Shown piece after piece: positions 145 through 9,220 of a DNA stretch of 9,220 nucleotides; position 1 is the first letter of the stretch; every line of letters begins with the position of its first letter. Made by a program: the position numbers and the translations under genes. The stretch covers positions 1 through 9,220 of the forward strand of contig JAFGBW010000203.1 in NCBI GenBank assembly GCA_016932965.1. Reading direction: 5' to 3'. The notes under the pieces are model-generated. The model was given only the letters and a program-made list of their open reading frames with translations, was not told the origin of the DNA and did no database searches. Source of the stretch: Candidatus Auribacterota bacterium. Lineage in GTDB: Bacteria; Auribacterota; JAFGBW01.

Positions 145-2445
145 ATGCTCATCAGCCCACAACTGCAGATCGCTTTGAATGAGGCCGGAGCTTGTGCTCA
201 GGACATGACCCATGAATACGTCACCCTGGAACATCTCTTCCTGGCGTTATTGAACTGCTCTGAAATCAGCTACATCATCGAAGCCTGTCACGGAGATGTG
301 GAACGCCTGAAAAACAAAGTCAGCGCCTATCTGGCCACTCTAGGTAAAACCGGGACCGGAAAACTCCCGGTTCCCACGGCCGCCCTGGAACGGGTGCTTC
401 AGGAATCCGCCATCCATGTCCAGTCAGCCGGCAAGGAAAAAATCGTGGCGGGGAACGTCTTTGCCGCCTTTTTCAATGAAAAAGAATCCATGACCTATGT
501 CTGGCTCAAGGAAGAGGGAATCAGAAGACTCGATGTTTTGAGAGTCTTGTCGCACGATCCCCATGCCGGACTCAGTAAAAAAAGAAAATACGCTCCGGAC
601 GGGGCCTTGTCTGAAGAGGAGGAAGAGGCCGTCCCTGTTTCCAGGGCCCTTGAAAAATACACGATCAATCTGAACCAAAGGGCCACCCAGGGCAAACTAG
701 ACCCTTTGATCGGCAGGGATTCGGAATTAAAACAGACAGTGAGAATTTTAATGCGGAGGCAGAAAAACAACCCCGTGCTGGTCGGAGACGCCGGCGTGGG
801 AAAAACAGCCATCGCGGAAGGGCTGGCACAGAGAATCGTCAAAGGGGATGTGCCTGAACAATTGAAAAAGTCCGTGATCTATGTTCTGGACCTGGCCTCC
901 CTTCTGGCAGGAACCCGTTACAGGGGTGATTTCGAGGAACGGTTCAAGACCGTTCTGGAAGGACTCCGCACCAAACAGGGCAGCATTCTCTTTATCGATG
1001 AAATCCATAACATCATCGGCGCAGGCGCCACGTCCAGCGGGACCATGGACGCGTCCAATCTGTTAAAACCCGTTCTTGGAGCGGGAGAAATCAAGTGCAT
1101 CGGCGCGACAACGTTTGACGAATACCGGAAACATTTCGTGAAATCCAAAGCGTTTTCAAGACGTTTCCAGAAAGTGGACGTCAGGGAACCCAAACTCCAT
1201 GAAGTCATCGAAATCCTGAAAGGATTGAAATCCAGGTACGAGTCCTATCACAGGGTCACGTTCACCGATTCAGCCATCGAATGCGCCGTCACCCTGTCGG
1301 AAAGACTCATCCAGGACCGGAAACTGCCCGACAAGGCGATCGATGTCCTGGACGAGGCAGGCGCCGCCAACCTCATGCTGGACGAGATCAGCAGAAAAAA
1401 AATCATCGATGTCCCTGAAATAGAAAAAGTCATCTCTGAAATGACGTCGCTCCCCGCCATCAAGGTCACGAGTTCCGACCGGGAATTCCTGAAAAATCTG
1501 TGCCTGAATCTGAAACTCCTGATTTACGGACAGGACACAGCCATTGAAACGGTTTCATCCGCCATCAAACTGTCCCGCTCAGGACTGGGACCCAAAGGCC
1601 GCCCTATCGGATGCTTTCTCTTTTATGGGCCGACAGGCGTGGGAAAAACCGAACTGGCCAGACAGCTCTCCGTGAACCTGGGCATTGAGTTCATCCGCTT
1701 CGATATGAGCGAATACATGGAGGCCCATGCCGTGGCGCGCCTGATCGGTGCTCCCCCGGGTTATGTGGGATTCGACCAGGGCGGACTCCTGACGGAATCC
1801 GTTTCCAAAACACCCCACGCCGTGATCCTCCTGGATGAAATCGAAAAAGCCCACCCTGACCTCATCAACATTCTGCTCCAGGTCATGGACCACGGGACCC
1901 TGACCGACAACAACGGTAAAAAGGCCGATTTCCAGCATGCCATCCTCATCATGACCACCAACATCGGCGCAAGAGAAATGGATAAAAATAACATCGGTTT
2001 CCAGTCCGGCTCCGACAGCATCCATGATCCGATCCGGGAAATCAAAAAACATTTCTCCCCGGAATTCCGAAACCGACTGGACGCGATTGTCCAGTTTCAC
2101 CCCCTTCCCCGGGAAATTGTCCTGCAGGTGGTCCATAAATTTTTGGGAGAGCTCCAGACACAACTGGAGGAGAAAAACATCGTTTTTGAAGCGGATTCGT
2201 CTCTCAAAGAATGGATCCTGGAAAATGCCTATGACGCCAAACTCGGGGCGCGCCCCATGTACCGGTTCATCCAGGAACATATCAGAAAACCCCTCTCCGA
2301 TGAGATCCTTTTCGGAAAACTGGAAAAGGGCGGGGAAGTGAGGGTCAGAATGAAAGACGGAAAACCGGCCTTTGAAACAGAACCCGCAGAGTCCCCTGCC
2401 GCTCAGGAAAAAACCGGGGCAGAGGAAAAGGTGGAGGGCGTCTGA
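145..2445 (+). CDS. clpA: ATP-dependent Clp protease ATP-binding subunit ClpA
   Basis: This encodes the HSP100/AAA+ unfoldase that pairs with ClpP in the cytoplasm, unfolding substrates and threading them into the protease. The 766-aa length is usual for ClpA. The N-terminal Clp repeat domain covers about residues 1-140 and begins MLISPQLQIALNEAGACAQD, as in other ClpA proteins, which supports the start at 145. An acidic linker (about 150-165) leads into AAA+ module 1: Walker A GDAGVGKT (214-221), pore loop RYRGD (258-262), Walker B ILFIDE (281-286) and arginine-finger candidates R339/R340. Module 2 has Walker A GPTGVGKT (495-502), pore loop GYVG (539-542), Walker B ILLDE (561-565) and sensor-2 GAR (701-703). 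The IGF tripeptide at 617-619 sits where the ClpP-docking loop is expected. There is no long middle coiled coil, so it is ClpA rather than ClpB or ClpC. The C-terminal tail from about 745 is low complexity. The adaptor gene clpS, often next to clpA, is not visible in the 144 nt upstream. Confidence 0.95.
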   Translation: MLISPQLQIALNEAGACAQDMTHEYVTLEHLFLALLNCSEISYIIEACHGDVERLKNKVSAYLATLGKTGTGKLPVPTAALERVLQESAIHVQSAGKEKIVAGNVFAAFFNEKESMTYVWLKEEGIRRLDVLRVLSHDPHAGLSKKRKYAPDGALSEEEEEAVPVSRALEKYTINLNQRATQGKLDPLIGRDSELKQTVRILMRRQKNNPVLVGDAGVGKTAIAEGLAQRIVKGDVPEQLKKSVIYVLDLASLLAGTRYRGDFEERFKTVLEGLRTKQGSILFIDEIHNIIGAGATSSGTMDASNLLKPVLGAGEIKCIGATTFDEYRKHFVKSKAFSRRFQKVDVREPKLHEVIEILKGLKSRYESYHRVTFTDSAIECAVTLSERLIQDRKLPDKAIDVLDEAGAANLMLDEISRKKIIDVPEIEKVISEMTSLPAIKVTSSDREFLKNLCLNLKLLIYGQDTAIETVSSAIKLSRSGLGPKGRPIGCFLFYGPTGVGKTELARQLSVNLGIEFIRFDMSEYMEAHAVARLIGAPPGYVGFDQGGLLTESVSKTPHAVILLDEIEKAHPDLINILLQVMDHGTLTDNNGKKADFQHAILIMTTNIGAREMDKNNIGFQSGSDSIHDPIREIKKHFSPEFRNRLDAIVQFHPLPREIVLQVVHKFLGELQTQLEEKNIVFEADSSLKEWILENAYDAKLGARPMYRFIQEHIRKPLSDEILFGKLEKGGEVRVRMKDGKPAFETEPAESPAAQEKTGAEEKVEGV

Positions 2446-2452
2446 ATTTTTC

Positions 2453-2560
2453 TTCGGGCGGAAAACTTCTTTTCCGGAAAAGAAGTTTTCCGCCCGAACC
2501 CTCCTTTCAAGAAAACGAATCCGCGTCCCATGTTTTTTTGAAACAAAAAATCATGGGACG
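2453..2560 (+). repeat. two-hairpin composite element, copy 1 (after clpA)
   Basis: The element begins 7 nt after the clpA stop. Hairpin A (2453-2498) is a perfect palindrome with 23-nt arms and no loop; its left arm contains GGGCGGAAAACTTCTTTTCC. A linker follows with the core CCTTTCAAGAAAA (2503-2515). Hairpin B (2524-2560) has a 9-bp outer stem CGTCCCATG/CATGGGACG, one T-T mismatch, then six T-A pairs closing a GAAAC loop (2540-2544). Related copies lie after dnaK (8465-8552) and after thiE (8625-8729, inverted). The linker here matches the thiE copy at 23 of 27 positions. Nothing after hairpin B resembles a U-tract, so it is not a textbook intrinsic terminator, although a role in 3'-end formation or mRNA protection is plausible. 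Open frames crossing it on both strands are probably only translations of the palindromes. Confidence 0.8.
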
Positions 2561-2634
2561 GATATAGTGTTATTAACCGGACCGGAGTCATCAAAAACCA
2601 AATAATCTTCCGCCGATTCAGGTAATACTAAAAA

Positions 2635-2922
2635 ATGATCGCTCAAAGTGAAACGGAAAGTTTTCTGGCTTTATTGCACAATGCGGCCTACTATTTTGCC
2701 CTTGTCTCCTTTCTCTTTGATGCGGAGAAAGCGGAACAATCAGTAAGCAAGGCATATCAGGTAACGACCCTTTTGAGAGAATTAGGCCTGCAAAGGGTCA
2801 CGTTTGATCAGCTGGCACGGTATGATTCAAAAATGATTCAATCCCATCAGGTCAATCCCGGCGTCATTGACCATGATCTGGCCAGAGTGGAACCCAATCT
2901 GGCTGTCTTATGCGCGGCCTGA
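2635..2922 (+). CDS. hypothetical protein, 95 aa
   Basis: I do not recognise this protein. It is 95 residues long, mostly helical in character, with no signal peptide, no clear membrane span and no metal-binding or nucleotide-binding motif. The middle (about residues 20-60) alternates charged and hydrophobic residues as in an amphipathic helical protein. The ATG at 2635 is preceded only by a weak AGG 12-14 nt upstream. The gene stands alone between the two-hairpin element after clpA and the convergent CheB-like gene, whose stop codon is 18 nt away. No terminator is visible in that 18-nt gap. It could be a real small gene or a chance ORF; no better ORF covers the same segment on either strand. 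Confidence 0.5.
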   Translation: MIAQSETESFLALLHNAAYYFALVSFLFDAEKAEQSVSKAYQVTTLLRELGLQRVTFDQLARYDSKMIQSHQVNPGVIDHDLARVEPNLAVLCAA

Positions 2923-2940
2923 TAAATGACGGAATGTATT

Positions 2941-3984
2941 TTATTTCAGCGAATTAATCAGCAGGTGAATCTGGTCAATGGGGACCCTGACGTTGGCGTA
3001 CTCGCTCTCCCCCACCCCCAGCATTTCCGAATCCTGGATGACCGTGTAATGGCCGTGCGCCCTCAAATTCTGCATTTCCGACATCCCGTCTCCACCGGAA
3101 AATTTTAAAAGCACCGCCATGGTTTTGGTGTTCGGAAGGGCCAGCGCCGACTGAAAAAGATGGTTGATGGGCTGAAGGGTTTCCATGTCGATCGCGTTTT
3201 CCTGTTTGATGACCTCGATCAGGAATTTTGATTCGTACGCTTTTAATTCCACCAGCTGGTCGGCGGATGCCATGTAGATGAACCTCGGAAACAGGGGAAA
3301 GGCGTCTTCCACGATCTTGATGGGCACTTTCATGATTTTTTTCAGCTCATCCACCAGGTTTTTCACATACATGGTGTTCATGTGGCAGAGCGCTAAAATG
3401 GGAATGTTGGAATTTTTTTCTATCTTGGAAAACACCTGAAGCATGGACTGATATCCGCCGGCACCGACGCCCAGTAAAATCAGGTTGATGTCTTTCGGCA
3501 CGGTAACCACCTCCGTCACCTTGTGAAGCACCTGGTCCCCCTGCTGGGCGATCTTTTCGTAAAACAGACGGTTCTTGTGCTGCAGCTTGATCTTCGGGAT
3601 AACACTCTCCCGGATGAATTGAATGTTCTTGTCGATGGAGGAAGCGTCCAGCACCTTGGGAATAAAATCAGAGGCGCCCTGCGAAAGGCATTTGACCGTG
3701 GCAGAAGCTCCGGTATCGGTCAATGAACTGAGCATGATGACAGGAATGGACGGATATTTCTCCCGAAGGACCTGCAATGTTTCAAGACCGTTCATGCCGG
3801 GCATTTCAATATCCAGCGTGATGACGTCCGGTTTTAAAAGAGGAATTTTCTCCAGGCAGTCTTTTCCGTCCTCGGCCACCCCTACCACGTTGATTTCAGG
3901 GTCTTTTGCAATGACGACCTGCAGGATCTTGCGATAGGCGCTGCTGTCATCCACAATCAGTAAATTGATCTTGTCCGTACTCAT
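2941..3984 (-). CDS. response regulator with degenerate CheB-type methylesterase domain
   Basis: The 347-aa protein has the CheB layout: an N-terminal receiver, a linker and a C-terminal domain with the CheB fold pattern. The receiver (about 5-125) looks functional, with acidic pair D12/D13, phospho-acceptor D58 in ITLDIEMPGMNG, the S86/S87 switch position and K110 in FIPK. In the C-terminal domain (about 165-347) the nucleophile motif, normally IGASTGG, reads LGVGAGG (171-177), so the catalytic serine position is G174. H201 (in CHM) and D299 (in GGDG) of the triad remain. The methylesterase/deamidase reaction on chemoreceptor glutamates is therefore probably lost, leaving a phosphorylation-controlled binding protein; this is inference. 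Its ATG overlaps the upstream gene's stop codon (ATGA), so the two are probably cotranscribed and translationally coupled. No chemoreceptor, CheR or CheA gene is nearby in the window. Confidence 0.85.
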   Translation of the reverse strand: MSTDKINLLIVDDSSAYRKILQVVIAKDPEINVVGVAEDGKDCLEKIPLLKPDVITLDIEMPGMNGLETLQVLREKYPSIPVIMLSSLTDTGASATVKCLSQGASDFIPKVLDASSIDKNIQFIRESVIPKIKLQHKNRLFYEKIAQQGDQVLHKVTEVVTVPKDINLILLGVGAGGYQSMLQVFSKIEKNSNIPILALCHMNTMYVKNLVDELKKIMKVPIKIVEDAFPLFPRFIYMASADQLVELKAYESKFLIEVIKQENAIDMETLQPINHLFQSALALPNTKTMAVLLKFSGGDGMSEMQNLRAHGHYTVIQDSEMLGVGESEYANVRVPIDQIHLLINSLK

Positions 3985-4943
3985 GATAATGACTTGATAA
4001 CAATAGTGGTAATAAACAGGCTGCCCATGGTGGCGGTGGCCAGAGTCAATAAAACGGACAGCCAGTCACAGGAAAGCCCCCTGGTTAATAAACGGCTGTA
4101 AAAGTTTAATTTCACGATCAAAATCAGAGTCCCCGTAATGAGTCCCACCCATTCTAATGAAAAAAATAGAAAAGCATAAATAAAGAAATTCCGGATAAAA
4201 ATAAAAAACGATTCCATCCCTAAGACAAATACACTGAGATAGACGCAGGACAACTTATTTTCCGTTGTACAAATGCCGAAGGCAAACAGGCCGGAGAAAA
4301 TCACCCACTCTGAGAAGGTGGCCCCTAGGGAAACATGATTGGGAAAGACCGGAGAAAAAAACCTGCATAAAATCGCGCCGGCCATGAAACAGATGCCCAT
4401 GAATAGAAAACGGACCCTGAAAGGAGTGGACTGGCGGAGAAGATATAAAGAATCGGTAAACGTCTCACCCGGTTTTTTGAATACGTTCGAAAAAAAGAGT
4501 TTCAGGGAAGGTGACTGGATGACTTTCAGGACATAAGCAGCAGGCTGGACCGAAGGAGGCTCTTCAGGCTGTTTTTCAGGAATTTTTTGTATCTCATCGA
4601 CGGAATCACCCAGATGAGCGGAAAAAGTGGCTTCAGGCGATCCTTGTGTTTTTGTATCTACGACTGTCTGGGAAAGCACGGGCCAGGACGACGATTCCTC
4701 ATTCAGACCGGAATCCGGTTTTTTGATTTCAGGCTGGGGCTTCGGAGCGGGTGCTTGGGGTTTAAAAGTCCCTGCCTGATCATTTGATTCTATTTCCTGA
4801 CACTGACCCTGACACTGGGGACAAAAAAACGTATTGAAAGTACCGGCGCGGAAAATCTGAACGCATTCTTCACAGAAACACACCTGACAAGGACCGCATT
4901 CATACAGCGCTTTTCTATCAGCATGATTCACGCAGTTCATCAT
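3981..4943 (-). CDS. B-box-type zinc-finger, multi-pass membrane protein (Yip1-like)
   Basis: From the ATG at 4943 the protein has 320 residues. The N-terminus carries a B-box-like zinc site: C4, H7, C16, C19, C22, C24 and C27, followed by CPQC at 41-44 and C48. Residues about 50-140 are Pro/Gln/Glu-rich and probably disordered. From about 145 the sequence LKLFFSNVFKKPGETF leads into roughly five hydrophobic spans (about 178-196, 211-227, 231-251, 253-278 and 294-316). This resembles bacterial Yip1-domain membrane proteins with a cytosolic zinc finger, but I would not assign a function. An in-frame TTG at 4967 would add eight residues. I prefer ATG 4943 because the zinc site begins immediately after it, although neither start has a strong Shine-Dalgarno sequence. 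The stop overlaps the start of the CheB-like gene by 4 bp, suggesting that the two work together at the membrane. Confidence 0.75.
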   Translation of the reverse strand: MMNCVNHADRKALYECGPCQVCFCEECVQIFRAGTFNTFFCPQCQGQCQEIESNDQAGTFKPQAPAPKPQPEIKKPDSGLNEESSSWPVLSQTVVDTKTQGSPEATFSAHLGDSVDEIQKIPEKQPEEPPSVQPAAYVLKVIQSPSLKLFFSNVFKKPGETFTDSLYLLRQSTPFRVRFLFMGICFMAGAILCRFFSPVFPNHVSLGATFSEWVIFSGLFAFGICTTENKLSCVYLSVFVLGMESFFIFIRNFFIYAFLFFSLEWVGLITGTLILIVKLNFYSRLLTRGLSCDWLSVLLTLATATMGSLFITTIVIKSLS

Positions 4944-4997
4944 TGATTCAAACGGGTAAAAGTCCAATCACTCATTTAAACATCCCAGTTGGTCTTC

Positions 4998-5321
4998 ATG
5001 ATAAGAATAGAAAACCATTATCAAATCCCTGTAAATGATTCAAGACAAGAAGCCTCTTCTCAGTACTCTCCGGTAAAAAGCATAATCACAGGTAAAACAG
5101 GAGGCAGAATAAAAATAACAACTGATGAGCAGGAATTTAGAATTGAGAATAAAATGGAAGAACTTTTTACACTAATAACAAGGCTTCCCATTGAAATTCA
5201 AACTAGATACAAACAGAAATATAATCTGGATCGAGGCAGAAGATTCCCGATGGGACATCGGGCATCGTTCTCTTGCCCTTTCAGGCAACTTCCTCGTCCC
5301 TCTTCGCCATATAAGGCTTAG
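4998..5321 (+). CDS. doubtful hypothetical ORF, possibly a remnant
   Basis: This 107-codon ORF starts MIRIENHYQIPVNDSRQEA. The first 75 or so residues have plausible protein composition, for example EFRIENKMEELFTLITRLP. The tail, rich in Arg, Pro and Ser, runs into the CCCGAT/ATCGGG hairpin and then pyrimidine-rich intergenic sequence, so the 3' half looks non-coding. One reading is a small gene whose end was lost or replaced; another is chance. Part of the frame, around EFRIENK, reads through the inverted heptamer repeat at 5133-5150. I recognise no family, and no clear Shine-Dalgarno sequence precedes the start. Confidence 0.2.
   Translation: MIRIENHYQIPVNDSRQEASSQYSPVKSIITGKTGGRIKITTDEQEFRIENKMEELFTLITRLPIEIQTRYKQKYNLDRGRRFPMGHRASFSCPFRQLPRPSSPYKA
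5133..5150 (-). repeat. AT-rich heptamer repeat, inverted copy
   Basis: Read on the minus strand this is ATTCTCAATTCTAAATTC, matching the heptamer units at 44-67 and 5348-5372. Together with 5348-5372 it forms an imperfect inverted repeat with about 200 bp between the arms. Confidence 0.5.
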
Positions 5322-5347
5322 AGTCTTAATTCTCATTTCCTCTTCCC

Positions 5348-5372
5348 ATTCTCAATTCTCAATTCTTAATTC
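5348..5372 (+). repeat. AT-rich heptamer repeat upstream of grpE
   Basis: The units are ATTCTCA, ATTCTCA, ATTCTTA and ATTC. Seventeen or more positions match the copy upstream of clpA. It is intergenic and of unknown role. Confidence 0.6.
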
Positions 5373-5606
5373 CGCCCCCTCTGTGGTGATAATTATTTTT
5401 AAGATACTTCCGTATCTGTCAAACTTGAGTCGTCCATCATCTGATATGGTGATTTACCGGATTAATTAATTCATGGACCCGGTGTATAGCAATGTGACCC
5501 ACTTTGAGACATTTGTAGCAGGTCTGCTTTCTGTTAACGCGAGTGTCATCCGGTAACCAAAATGGTGGAATCCTTACGAGGCAACGCCTGCAGGACAATT
5601 AATGAT

Positions 5607-5621
5607 CAATATTTGATATTG
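5607..5621. promoter_or_regulatory. palindrome upstream of grpE, possible operator
   Basis: CAATAT (5607-5612) and ATATTG (5616-5621) form a perfect inverted repeat around TTG, 99 nt before the grpE start. The symmetry and position fit a dimeric regulator site, but an AT-rich background makes chance palindromes common. A second inverted repeat, ACAATT/AATTGT, lies at 5662-5682 with an A-rich loop. No transcription factor can be named. Confidence 0.25.
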
Positions 5622-5707
5622 GTATGTATATTGCTTTTCCTTCTTATGAAATAAAGTAAAAACAATTCTAAAAAAAAATTGTCAATAAACAGGAAAGAAT
5701 GAGCGAT

Positions 5708-5713
5708 TAAGGA
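5708..5713 (+). promoter_or_regulatory. ribosome binding site of grpE
   Basis: TAAGGA lies 7 nt before the ATG at 5721 and fixes the grpE start. The UAA within it is also the stop of a three-codon ORF (ATG at 5699, MSD), which has its own AGGAAAG upstream. Confidence 0.7.
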
Positions 5714-5720
5714 ACCAGCG

Positions 5721-6443
5721 ATGACAAAGAAAGAGCACAAAAAGGAAGATCATCCGCATCATGCAGGTAAACATAGCCAGCATGAAAAAAAAGAGGATGT
5801 CCTTTCATCAACAGCAAAAGAATCCTCAGCAAACATGACCGGGGAAGAAATAAAACCGGAGCAGGCTGAAGAAACCACCCTATCAGCGAATGAGATAAAA
5901 GAGGAGCTGGACAAAGCCAGAAAACAGGCCCGGGAATATCTGGACCACCTTCAGCGCTTACAGGCTGAATTCGATAATTATAGAAAACGGGAGGAAAAAC
6001 AAAGGCTGTTATTAAAAGAGAAAATACTGGAAGACGTGGCTTGCGATTTATTGCCCGTGGTCGATAACTTTGAAAGGGCCATGATTCACGCGAACCAGAG
6101 TAACATCACTTTAGAGTCGCACGTGAACGGCATGGAACTGGTGTTAAAGCAGTTCCTGGAAATGCTGGCCAAAATGCATATCAATCCCATGGATGATACC
6201 CTGGGCAAAAAATTTGATCCGCATTTCCACGAAGCCATGATGAGCGCCCCTTCCAAAGACCACGAGGAAGGGCATGTGGCTGAAGTGCTTCAGAAAGGCT
6301 GGATGCTTCTTGAAAAGGTCATCCGCCCGGCCATGGTGGTTGTTTCGTCAGGGAACAAAACGGGTGTGGAAAACGAAACCGCTTCCGACACAGGCCAGAC
6401 CCAAACGGAGAACACGGAATCAGGAAACACGGATACGAATTGA
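5721..6443 (+). CDS. grpE: GrpE, nucleotide exchange factor of DnaK
   Basis: GrpE is the cytoplasmic homodimer that opens the DnaK nucleotide site to release ADP, driving the Hsp70 cycle and acting as a thermosensor. The protein is 240 aa, longer than many GrpE proteins because both ends are extended. Residues 1-50 are charged and histidine-rich, with six His between residues 6 and 21. A long coiled-coil helix spans about 55-105 and includes YLDHLQRLQAEFDNYRKREE. The segment LLPVVDNFERA (110-120) leads into the four-helix bundle. The beta domain that contacts DnaK is visible as KFDPHFHEAMM (164-174) and GHVAEVLQKGWMLLEKVIRP (184-203). The tail from about 212 is Thr/Glu/Asn-rich and probably disordered. 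dnaK follows after 70 nt in the same direction, so the pair is likely one transcript. No hrcA lies upstream, unlike many hrcA-grpE-dnaK operons. Confidence 0.95.
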   Translation: MTKKEHKKEDHPHHAGKHSQHEKKEDVLSSTAKESSANMTGEEIKPEQAEETTLSANEIKEELDKARKQAREYLDHLQRLQAEFDNYRKREEKQRLLLKEKILEDVACDLLPVVDNFERAMIHANQSNITLESHVNGMELVLKQFLEMLAKMHINPMDDTLGKKFDPHFHEAMMSAPSKDHEEGHVAEVLQKGWMLLEKVIRPAMVVVSSGNKTGVENETASDTGQTQTENTESGNTDTN

Positions 6444-6500
6444 ATCATTTCAGCAGGAACGGTCCTCTACCTATGCCTGCCTGAAAAAACAAATATCATG

Positions 6501-6506
6501 AAGGAG
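6501..6506 (+). promoter_or_regulatory. ribosome binding site that decides the dnaK start
   Basis: AAGGAG is one of the strongest Shine-Dalgarno matches in the window. It sits 7 nt before the ATG at 6514 but only 1 nt before the in-frame ATG at 6508, so 6514 is the likely start and the protein begins [14 protein letters not shown]. Confidence 0.8.
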
Positions 6507-6513
6507 AATGAAC

Positions 6514-8457
6514 ATGGGAAATACTAAAATTATAGGAATAGATTTAGGAACAACGTATTCCTGCGTTTCAGTGATGGAAGGCGGCAAACCCGTTGTGATC
6601 ACCAATTCAGAAGGGAGCAGAACCACACCGTCCATCGTGGCTTTCACTAAAGACGGGGAAAGGCTGGTCGGACAGGTCGCGAAAAGACAAGCCATTACCA
6701 ATCCCGAGAACACGGTTTTTTCAGCCAAGCGTTTCATCGGACGCAAATACACCGAATGTCACTCTGAAAAAAAGATGGTTCCCTTTAAAGTCTCGGAAGG
6801 AAAAAACGGAGACGTGAGATTTTCCGTCAACCAGGGTGAATTCTCTCCGCCTGAAATTTCAGCCATCGTGCTGCAGAAAATGAAAAAGACAGCGGAAGAT
6901 TACCTGGGGACAGAAGTCAAGCAGGCCGTCATCACGGTGCCGGCTTATTTCAACGATTCCCAGCGCCAGGCCACTAAAGACGCGGGAACCATTGCCGGGC
7001 TGGACGTACTCCGCATCATCAACGAACCCACCGCGGCGGCCCTGGCTTACGGAATGGACAAGAAAAAAGAAGAAACCGTTGCCATTTTTGATTTCGGCGG
7101 CGGCACGTTTGATATTTCCATCCTTGAAATCGGGGACGGTGTTTTTGAAGTGAAAGCCACCAACGGCGATACCCATCTGGGAGGCGATGATTTTGACCAG
7201 GCTGTCATGGACTGGCTGATCACGGAATTCAAAAAAGACCAGGGAATCGATCTCAAAAACGATAAGATGGCCATCCAGCGACTGAAGGAAGCGGCTGAAA
7301 AAGGCAAGTGTGAACTTTCCTCATCCATGGAGACGCAGATCAACCTTCCCTTCATCACGGCCGACCAGAGCGGGCCGAAACATTTGAACATGACCTTATC
7401 GCGTTCCAAATTTGAAGCCATCATCGAGCCGTTTTTAGACAGGGCCGTTGACCCCTGCAACAAATGCATGGCCGATGCCGGTCTGACTTCGGATAAGATC
7501 CATGAGGTGATTTTGGTGGGCGGGTCCACAAGAGTGCCGGCCATCCAGGCACTTGTCAGAAAAATTTTCGGAAAAGAAGGCAATAAAAGCGTCAACCCGG
7601 ATGAAGTAGTGGCTGTCGGCGCCGCCATCCAGGGAGGAGTTCTGGGCGGAGAAGTCAAGGACGTCCTCTTATTGGATGTCACGCCCCTTTCCCTCGGCAT
7701 CGAAACGTTAGGCGGGGTTTTTACCCGGCTGATTGACAGAAACACAACCATCCCCACCAAGCGTTCCCAGATCTTTTCCACAGCGGACGATAACCAGACC
7801 GTGGTCAGCATCCATGTGCTCCAGGGCGAGCGTCCTCTGGCCAAAGACAACCGCTCCCTGGCCCGGTTCGACCTCTCTGATATTCCTCCGGCGCCGCGCG
7901 GAGTCCCCCAGATCGAGGTGACTTTCGATATCGACGCCAATGGCATTGTGCACGTGACAGCCAAGGACCTTTCCACCGGCAAACAACAGAAAATCCGCGT
8001 GGAGGCTTCTTCAGGACTCTCTGAAAATGAAATTGACCGCATGGTCAAAGAGGCTGAAACTCATGCCAGGGATGATAAGGAAAAAGAGAAAACCATTCAG
8101 GAAAAAAATGAGGCTGAACACCTGATCTATCAGACCGAAAAAGCACTCCGTGAATACGGCGACAAGATCGGCTCTGAAAAGGAAAAAATCGAAGCGGCCG
8201 TTAAAAAGCTGAAAGACGCCGTCTCCAGCGGCGACAGCGACCGAATCAAAAAAGCCAAGGAGGAATTGAGCCTGGCCGCGCAGAAAATAGGCGAGATCAT
8301 GGCCAAGGAAGCCCAGGCCCAGCAGGGTGCCGCAGGGAAACAGCAGTCTTCGGGAAAAAGCCAGGACACCCCGCATGATAAGGGCCCCAAAGACCAGGGT
8401 CCCTCCTCTAAAAAAGATGACGACGTCATCGACGCCGAATTCGAGGAAAGCAAGTAA
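6514..8457 (+). CDS. dnaK: molecular chaperone DnaK (Hsp70)
   Basis: DnaK is an ATP-driven cytoplasmic chaperone that binds exposed hydrophobic stretches of client proteins, working with DnaJ and GrpE. At 647 aa it is full length. The ATPase domain shows phosphate-1 motif [10 protein letters not shown] (9-18), phosphate-2 motif [11 protein letters not shown] (192-202) with the conserved Thr at 198, and adenosine motif [10 protein letters not shown] (333-342). The hydrophobic interdomain linker DVLLLDV (383-389) is intact. The beta-sandwich substrate domain (about 390-500) includes [12 protein letters not shown] and VLQGER, followed by a helical lid to about 600. The Gly/Gln/Lys-rich tail ends [13 protein letters not shown], the usual bacterial ending. 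An in-frame ATG at 6508 would add two residues but is too close to AAGGAG. grpE lies upstream; dnaJ does not follow. The gene ends 7 nt before a perfect palindrome that starts copy 2 of the two-hairpin element. Confidence 0.97.
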
Positions 8458-8464
8458 AAGCAAT

Positions 8465-8552
8465 ATGAAGGGAAACGTTTCCCTTCATGCTTCCCTTTTA
8501 AAGAAAAACATTGCGGCCGCTGATTTTTTTGAAGCAAAAAAATCAGCGGCCG
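8465..8552 (+). repeat. two-hairpin composite element, copy 2 (after dnaK)
   Basis: Hairpin A (8465-8488) is a perfect palindrome with 12-nt arms, ATGAAGGGAAAC, unrelated in stem sequence to hairpin A of the other copies. The 25-nt linker (8489-8513) has the diverged core CCCTTTTAAAGAAAAACATT. Hairpin B (8514-8552) has a perfect 17-bp stem: CGGCCGCTGA followed by seven T on the left arm and the complement on the right, around the loop GAAGC (8531-8535). Only the T-run, loop and A-run resemble hairpin B in the other copies; the outer stem is different but fully paired. It lies 7 nt after the dnaK stop. No U-tract follows, so intrinsic termination in the classical sense is unlikely. Confidence 0.75.
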
Positions 8553-8624
8553 GAACGGTTTCATTAAATTTAAAATAAAATTCCCTGCCTGATTTCAAAA
8601 TCCTGTTTCCTAGAATAATGCCCT

Positions 8625-8729
8625 GCGGGAAATGAATTTTTGTTTCAAAAAATTATTTCCCGCGCATTGATTTTCTTGAAAGGCGGGTTCGGGCGGAAAA
8701 CTTCTTTTGGTAAAAAAAGTTTTCCGCCC
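8625..8729 (-). repeat. two-hairpin composite element, copy 3 (after thiE, inverted)
   Basis: Read on the minus strand, hairpin A comes first (8729-8691). Its 18-nt arms share the GGGCGGAAAACTT stem with copy 1 and have one mismatch (8704 against 8716). A 27-nt linker (8690-8664) with CCTTTCAAGAAAA follows, 23 of 27 identical to copy 1. Hairpin B (8663-8625) has outer stem GCGGGAAAT/ATTTCCCGC, a one-base bulge, then an A/T stem with GAAAC in the loop. It starts 15 nt after the thiE stop, across a run of eight C (plus strand, 8737-8744). About 72 nt separate its hairpin B from that of copy 2, so the two convergent genes dnaK and thiE each end in their own copy, tail to tail. Confidence 0.8.
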
Positions 8730-8744
8730 AACAATACCCCCCCC

Positions 8745-9220
8745 TCAGCCATGACGGATTAATCTTTTTTCGATATCCAGGACGAGGTCTTTGACAGTGG
8801 AGGCGATTTTTTCCGCCTGGGTGATTTCCGTGACCATGGCGATATTTCTTGCTCCACATTCGATCACTTTTCTCAGATTGTCCTTCTTGATCCCCCCCAT
8901 GACGGAAAAAGGGAGTTTTGTTTTCACGCTTTTTAAATAATCCAGCCCGAGCGGTTTTACGGAAGTCATCTTGGTTTGTGTCTGGAAAACAGGACCGATA
9001 TTGATGTAAGTGGCGCCGTCTTCTTCAGCCCGCCGGATCTCTTCCTGCGTATGCGTTGAAACGCCGATCATAAGGCTGGGCGCGATCCTTCTGGCCTCCC
9101 GGCAGGGCAAATCATTTTGCCCCAGATGCACCCCGTCCGCCTCCACTGCCAGGGCGATGTCAACATGATCATTGATGATGAGTGTGACCCCGTTTTGCCT
9201 GGTGAGTCTGCGGTATTCTC
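8745..9220 (-). CDS. thiE: thiamine-phosphate synthase ThiE, 5' end outside window
   Basis: ThiE couples hydroxymethylpyrimidine diphosphate with thiazole phosphate to make thiamine phosphate, the joining step of vitamin B1 synthesis. The visible 157 residues cover the C-terminal three quarters of the TIM-barrel enzyme. They run from EYRRLTRQNGVTLIINDHVD through ADGVHLGQNDLP, GVSTHT, GPVFQTQTK (with the TxTK lysine and threonines of the phosphate site) and VMGGI to a stop at 8745-8747. The frame stays open to the right edge; the GTG at 9146 is an internal valine, not the start. About 50 N-terminal residues should lie beyond the window. The gene is convergent with dnaK, and its 3' end carries copy 3 of the two-hairpin element. 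Confidence 0.92.
   Translation of the reverse strand, partial: EYRRLTRQNGVTLIINDHVDIALAVEADGVHLGQNDLPCREARRIAPSLMIGVSTHTQEEIRRAEEDGATYINIGPVFQTQTKMTSVKPLGLDYLKSVKTKLPFSVMGGIKKDNLRKVIECGARNIAMVTEITQAEKIASTVKDLVLDIEKRLIRHG

What the first reader, a model, noticed from the sequence alone, without database searches (positions are those of the whole stretch)
2453..8729. Three copies of a two-hairpin element, each just after a stop codon
At 2453-2560, 8465-8552 and 8625-8729 (inverted) the same architecture recurs: long palindrome, 25-27 nt linker, second hairpin. The linker core CCTTTCAAGAAAA is identical in copies 1 and 3 and recognisable in copy 2. Every copy begins 7-15 nt after a stop codon (clpA, dnaK, thiE) and has the same orientation relative to that gene. 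Constant spacing, conserved linker and gene-end placement are more than chance hairpins would give. It may be a structured 3'-UTR element (RNA stability, unusual termination) or a REP/MITE-like repeat that inserts after genes. I know of no named family that matches.
Basis: seen in the sequence. Interest (0 to 1): 0.68.

Follow-up and report, generated by a model that had tools for sequence, protein, structure and literature searches.

The report
Triple-helix-coded hairpins at gene ends
Just after many gene stop codons this bacterium, and unrelated gut bacteria, carry a DNA hairpin followed by a strand whose letters match the hairpin base by base in the way a three-stranded helix requires, which is rare evolutionary evidence that a natural triple helix is being preserved.

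Summary
The three copies belong to a family with about 60 strong matches in this 3.1 Mb genome, none inside a gene, most starting 0-40 nt after a stop codon in the gene's own orientation. The key feature is not the two hairpins. The linker after hairpin 1 is the parallel complement (the mirror image, not the reverse complement) of that hairpin's whole 5' arm, e.g. GGGCGGAAAACTTCTTTT / CCCGCCTTTCAAGAAAA. That is the code for an intrastrand triplex: a pyrimidine third strand parallel to the 5' purine tract, then a purine third strand antiparallel to the 3' purine tract. Run lengths and interior substitutions of hairpin and linker co-vary over 133 distinct copies from several phyla, with flat controls. 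The same element occurs in gut Clostridia (138 exact-pattern copies in one genome) and a few others, again just after stop codons. Closest known kind: PIT/BoxC/TM intrastrand triplex motifs. The strand-switching code, gene-end placement and covariation are new to my knowledge. G.U pairs are no commoner than A.C mismatches, so the fold may act as DNA rather than RNA. Mechanism is inferred: a gene-end boundary that stops or shields transcription. No fold or function was measured.

The parts
2453..2498 (+). copy 1, hairpin 1 (perfect 21-bp stem), 7 nt after the clpA stop
2499..2515 (+). copy 1, putative third strand CCCTCCTTTCAAGAAAA, parallel complement of the hairpin 1 5' arm GGGCGGAAAACTTCTTTT
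   Evidence: score 11.5, 0 of 2000 shuffles as high
2520..2563 (+). copy 1, hairpin 2
8465..8488 (+). copy 2, hairpin 1 (short), 7 nt after the dnaK stop
8490..8498 (+). copy 2, putative third strand CTTCCCTTT over GAAGGGAAA: nine uninterrupted triplets, loops of 2 and 3 nt; the A-rich continuation runs to about 8509
   Evidence: score 9.0, p 0.0005
8514..8552 (+). copy 2, hairpin 2
8688..8731 (-). copy 3, hairpin 1, 13 nt after the thiE stop (minus strand)
8671..8687 (-). copy 3, putative third strand CCCGCCTTTCAAGAAAA
   Evidence: score 11.5, 0 of 2000 shuffles as high
8624..8664 (-). copy 3, hairpin 2
145..2445 (+). clpA-like gene whose end carries copy 1
   Evidence: gene name from sequence inspection
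6508..8457 (+). dnaK, whose end carries copy 2
   Evidence: dnaK matches
8745..9220 (-). thiE-like gene (5' end outside the window) whose end carries copy 3
   Evidence: gene name from sequence inspection

Best explanation
It is a dispersed gene-end element whose core is a long hairpin plus a 3' third strand coded to fold back into the hairpin's major groove. The fold would be an intrastrand triplex of alternate-strand type: in the lower half C/T of the third strand lie parallel on G/A of the 5' arm, and after the purine-pyrimidine junction A/G of the third strand lie antiparallel on A/G of the 3' arm. In this genome a second hairpin follows. Shown: the base-by-base correspondence and its covariation, the placement just after stop codons in sense orientation, and the occurrence in distant bacteria. 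Inferred: that the triplex really forms (as single-stranded DNA of either strand, or as the 3' UTR of the mRNA), and that it works as a boundary which stops or pauses RNA polymerase, or shields the transcript end, where related genes carry an ordinary intrinsic terminator.
For: Window copies: p 0.0005 or less each. Mirror score 9.2 (own genome, n=61) and 10.2 (other genomes, n=63) against about 4.7 for shuffles and 6.2-8.5 for direct, reverse and reverse-complement relations. Linkers fit the hairpin of their own subtype better than those of other subtypes. Purine-tract length of the hairpin against pyrimidine-tract length of the linker: rho 0.96. Over 133 distinct copies: A-run with T-run 0.71, C-run with C-run 0.89, T-run with A-run 0.65, mismatched controls 0.08 and -0.09; a C-G pair after the T-run goes with G after the linker's A-run in 12 of 13 copies against 0 of 120. 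A scan that did not use the search pattern found the same rule with new hairpin sequences such as GAGAGGAACC/CTCTCCTCC. Sense gene-end placement: own 42 of 62, other genomes 38 of 63, Clostridia G039 40 of 55 sense against 11 antisense. dnaK has an element 14 nt after its stop in G039; in the same-order genome G001 and in Desulfovibrio it has an intrinsic-terminator-like hairpin 11-14 nt after the stop.
Against: No fold was measured. Copies within a genome are related, so the P values overstate independence; I count roughly six independent origins of the upper C-G/G match by inspection. Subtypes B2 and D score lower under simple complement scoring because junction C lies opposite C. At the interruption in GGGCGG the third-strand base does not track the hairpin (T, G, G, A; G even when the hairpin has A). 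The purine half is a DNA-type triplex rule and is not expected to be stable in RNA, while the sense placement suggests transcription. The published PIT motifs showed no promoter or terminator activity (PMC4666352).
Confidence: 0.6

Rival explanations
1. A mobile palindromic element (REP/MITE-like) that spreads through the genome and settles preferentially behind genes. Hairpins and third strand would serve a transposase or the element's replication, not the host gene.
For: Many similar dispersed copies in subfamilies; patchy distribution: present in this genome, with no genuine copy found in 38 other genomes of the phylum (the one weak hit is an ordinary terminator), but common in some gut Clostridia.
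Against: No Y1/RAYT transposase gene in a 92.6% complete genome. Gene orientation is respected, and convergent genes each carry their own element of a different subtype. Orthologous gene ends in another clostridial genome keep an element in 3 of 7 cases against 11% of gene ends overall, a small sample.
Confidence: 0.2
2. A 3' UTR RNA element acting by ordinary base pairing only (two stacked hairpins that stabilise mRNA or help termination); the mirror relation of the linker is incidental.
For: Sense placement after stop codons; strong folding; covariation in hairpin 2.
Against: The mirror relation co-varies position by position and cannot come from antiparallel pairing. Pairing of the linker with the upstream flank is no better than with other copies' upstream flanks (7.06 against 6.78). 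G.U pairs are not favoured over A.C.
Confidence: 0.12
3. An ordinary bidirectional intrinsic terminator family of unusual sequence.
For: Position where other genomes have terminators after dnaK; found at convergent gene ends.
Against: Only 3 of 42 own-genome elements and 2 of 39 in G039 have a hairpin with a U tract at or just after them; in G047 5 of 5 have a separate terminator nearby. The genome also uses normal U-tract terminators elsewhere.
Confidence: 0.08

Closest known systems
PIT elements / BoxC / TM_ECO intrastrand triplex motifs (Hoyne and Maher; Holder et al. 2015, PMC4666352)
   Same: A hairpin followed after a short loop by a 3' third strand on the same DNA strand; dispersed, intergenic, multi-copy, patchy between relatives. 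Copy 2 alone (GAAGGGAAA cg TTTCCCTTC atg CTTCCCTTT) would pass the published ITxF stem and loop limits.
   Different: TM_ECO is a G/C-rich single-motif (purine) triplex, found more often upstream than downstream of genes with no set distance, and without promoter or terminator activity. Here the third strand switches motif and partner strand at a purine-pyrimidine junction, spans the whole hairpin, co-varies with it, and lies just after stop codons in sense orientation.
REP/BIME palindromes of enterobacteria (from my own knowledge)
   Same: Dispersed palindromes behind genes, in pairs or singly.
   Different: No RAYT gene found; the linker is a mirror strand, not a second inverted REP.
RNA stability elements with triple helices (ENE type; from my own knowledge)
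   Same: A triple helix near an RNA 3' end would be the closest functional analogue if the RNA is the active form.
   Different: ENEs clamp a poly(A) tail with a U-rich internal loop; here the third strand is an adjacent 3' segment with a mixed code, and RNA-level selection is not supported.

Membership tests
PIT / ITxF intrastrand triplex motif | three consecutive triplex-compatible stems of 6-15 nt on one strand with loops of 1-6 nt | tested here: met
   Copy 2: 9-nt stems, loops of 2 and 3 nt, no mismatch (definition).
PIT / ITxF intrastrand triplex motif | one triplex class throughout the stems | tested here: not met
   Copies 1 and 3 and most others change from pyrimidine to purine third strand at the junction.
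TM_ECO / BoxC | consensus CCCTCNCCC..GGGNGAGGG..GGGNGAGGG | tested here: not met
   Window and family sequences differ on inspection (consensus).
PIT / TM_ECO | triplex forms in vitro | not testable with these tools
   Needs CD, NMR or footprinting.
REP/RAYT system | a Y1 (RAYT) transposase in the genome | tested here: not met
   PF01797: no match in the own genome while 5 of 14 control genomes ring.
Intrinsic terminator | GC-rich hairpin followed directly by a U tract on the sense strand | tested here: not met
   3 of 42 own elements and 2 of 39 in G039.
Known Rfam family | score above a family's gathering threshold | tested here: not met
   Window scanned against 4227 families; only sub-threshold chance hits.

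The most novel reading that the evidence does not exclude
A natural alternate-strand intrastrand triple helix conserved by selection across bacterial phyla, placed just after stop codons as a gene-end device: the first covariation evidence, to my knowledge, that a genomic triplex is functional.
Probability: 0.5. Interest if true: 0.92.

Novelty: new variant of a known kind. Interest (0 to 1): 0.8.

Why it matters
Triplex-forming sequences have been catalogued in genomes for decades, but whether any is kept by selection as a triplex is unsettled; the earlier bacterial motif gave no clear function and no stable triplex signal in vivo (PMC4666352). Here hairpin and third strand change together across distant bacteria and sit where transcription should end. 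That makes the question directly testable by compensatory mutation, and suggests an end-of-gene signal that terminator and RNA-family searches overlook.

Tried and rejected
Watson-Crick pairing of the linker with purines upstream of hairpin 1: suggestive in some copies, not specific overall. Linker pairing with the hairpin 2 loop: seen by eye in subtype A, not maintained in other subtypes. Rfam. Y1 transposase. Plasmid and phage records by blastn and viral contigs by pattern: no match. Literature searches for the consensus strings: none. The weak hit in relative G030 is an ordinary terminator. Naming the organism: DnaK is 58-68% identical to every genome tried, so its phylum stays undetermined. 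A clpA comparison failed because same-order genomes have no close ortholog.

Full report
1. Observation. They start 7, 7 and 13 nt after the stops of clpA, dnaK and thiE and share the genes' orientation. Hairpin 2 differs in sequence between copies but stays paired: over the six-copy structure 8 pairs have changes on both sides. No Rfam family reaches its threshold.

2. A family in the own genome. BLAST with copy 1 finds four more close relatives outside the window. A covariance model built from six copies finds about 60 strong, non-overlapping elements among 3.14 Mb, in several sequence subtypes: A (GGGCGGAAAACTTCTTTT), B (GAAGGGAAACTTTTCTTTT), C (GCGGGAAAAACTTTTTT), D (GGGGGAAACCTTTTTT). None lies inside a gene. 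Of the 62 with at least 28 bits, 47 have the upstream gene on the same strand (tallied) and 42 start within -8 to +45 nt of a sense stop. Convergent genes often carry one element each, of different subtypes, for example dnaK and thiE in the window. In 590 kb of sampled contigs the elements were clearly clustered on some contigs.

3. The linker is a mirror strand. Written 5' to 3', the linker is the complement, not the reverse complement, of the 5' arm of hairpin 1: GGGCGGAAAACTTCTTTT/CCCGCCTTTCAAGAAAA, GAAGGGAAACTTTTCTTTT/CTTCCTTTCAAAAGAAAA, GGGGAAAACTTTTTT/CCCCTTTCAAAAAA. Equivalently it is the mirror image of the 3' arm. All three window copies show it (p 0.0005 or less each). The mean local score is 9.2 against 4.8 for shuffled linkers; direct, reverse and reverse-complement relations score 6.2-7.3 (own genome). 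DNA copying makes direct or inverted repeats, not mirror repeats, so a mirror relation that is maintained points to a structural constraint.

4. Covariation. One scan of named genomes with a hairpin-and-linker pattern found 99 stretches (80 shown), mostly in gut Clostridia, with others in Desulfobacterales DeMMO6_21 and a Desulfatibacillaceae MAG and single cases in Hydrogenedentota, Verrucomicrobiota, Lentisphaerae and Desulfovibrio. In these and the own genome the run lengths match: purine tract against pyrimidine tract rho 0.96 with the linker one shorter, and C-run against C-run 52 copies 1:1, 8 copies 2:2, one exception. A scan that did not use the pattern found the rule in 80 of 186 strong hairpins against 3 of 186 with shuffled flanks, including hairpins unlike the pattern: GGGGGAGGAAAAAC/CCCCCTCCTTTTC, GAGGGGAAC/CTCCCTTC, GAGAGGAACC/CTCTCCTCC, TTTCTTTT/AAAGAAAA. 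Over 133 distinct copies the A/T, C/C and T/A run lengths correlate at 0.71, 0.89 and 0.65, with mismatched controls near zero; a C-G pair after the T-run goes with G after the linker's A-run in 12 of 13 copies against 0 of 120. Copies within a genome are related, so these P values overstate independence, but the same matches recur in unrelated genomes and with different sequences.

5. What the rule means. A strand that returns beside a hairpin runs parallel to the 5' arm. Over the lower half the purines are in the 5' arm, and a parallel pyrimidine third strand is the classical T.A-T / C+.G-C motif. Over the upper half the purines are in the 3' arm, and the returning strand is antiparallel to them and made of A and G, the classical purine motif. 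The linker therefore obeys both orientation rules and switches at the junction. On the opposite DNA strand the same sequence places G and A antiparallel on the lower purines and T parallel on the upper ones, also canonical. Copy 2 is a nine-triplet single-motif case with loops of 2 and 3 nt. These chemical rules are established knowledge; that the structure forms is inference.

6. DNA or RNA. Stem mismatches of the G.U type (40) are no commoner than A.C (44) over all sets, so there is no sign of selection for RNA pairing; the purine half is also a DNA-type motif. Against this stands the strong sense placement. Both forms remain possible.

7. Gene ends elsewhere. In Clostridia RGIG1778 (G039), which holds 138 exact-pattern copies, a pattern-free scan of 386 kb from contigs that mostly held matches found 55 mirror-strand hairpins against 4 in the control; 40 start 2-38 nt after a sense stop, 11 pass the same test antisense. 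Its dnaK has one 14 nt after the stop. In the same-order genome and in Desulfovibrio, dnaK has an intrinsic-terminator-like hairpin at 11-14 nt instead. Elements are not U-tract terminators themselves. Orthologous gene ends keep an element in 3 of 7 cases against 11% background, a small sample.

8. Relation to known things. The nearest kind is the intrastrand triplex motif (PIT, BoxC, TM_ECO). Holder et al. report many copies in enterobacteria and cyanobacteria, triplex formation in vitro, no fixed distance from genes, and cite work showing no promoter or terminator activity (PMC4666352). The element described here differs in its strand-switching code, covariation, taxa and gene-end placement. 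I file it as a new variant of that kind, with function inferred.

9. Limits. Gene calls are open-reading-frame heuristics. The named-genome set was gathered with a pattern, although the correlations concern positions the pattern left free. G039 contigs were chosen mostly because they hold matches. The own genome's phylum is unknown to me.

Noticed in passing
window 5100-5400 (also 36-70): A second dispersed repeat family, with terminal inverted repeats containing AATTCTCAATTCTTAATT; 46 partial matches in the own genome. Probably a MITE or decayed insertion element, unrelated to the finding.
   Followed up: partly
L279:7701-7800 (Clostridia G039): dnaK of an unrelated gut Clostridia genome also carries the element, 14 nt after its stop.
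   Followed up: yes
own genome, hairpin 2 of subtypes A and B: The apical part of hairpin 2 is conserved (TTTTTTGAARCAAAAAA or TTCTTGAAGCAAGAA) while the stem below it varies with compensation; its role is unexplained.
   Followed up: partly
G039, downstream of the third strand: A tail CTTTNANACTGG follows the third strand, and many copies then have a long imperfect hairpin beginning GTGCAGATTT.
   Followed up: no
own genome C154, C85, C202, C283: Elements are clustered on some contigs (five on C154, several on the 8.7 kb C85) and rare on others; assembly mixing was not excluded.
   Followed up: no
window 2941-3984 (-): A response regulator whose C-terminal part looks CheB-like and possibly degenerate; a cysteine-rich membrane-protein ORF (3981-4967) overlaps its start. 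Judged by eye only.
   Followed up: no
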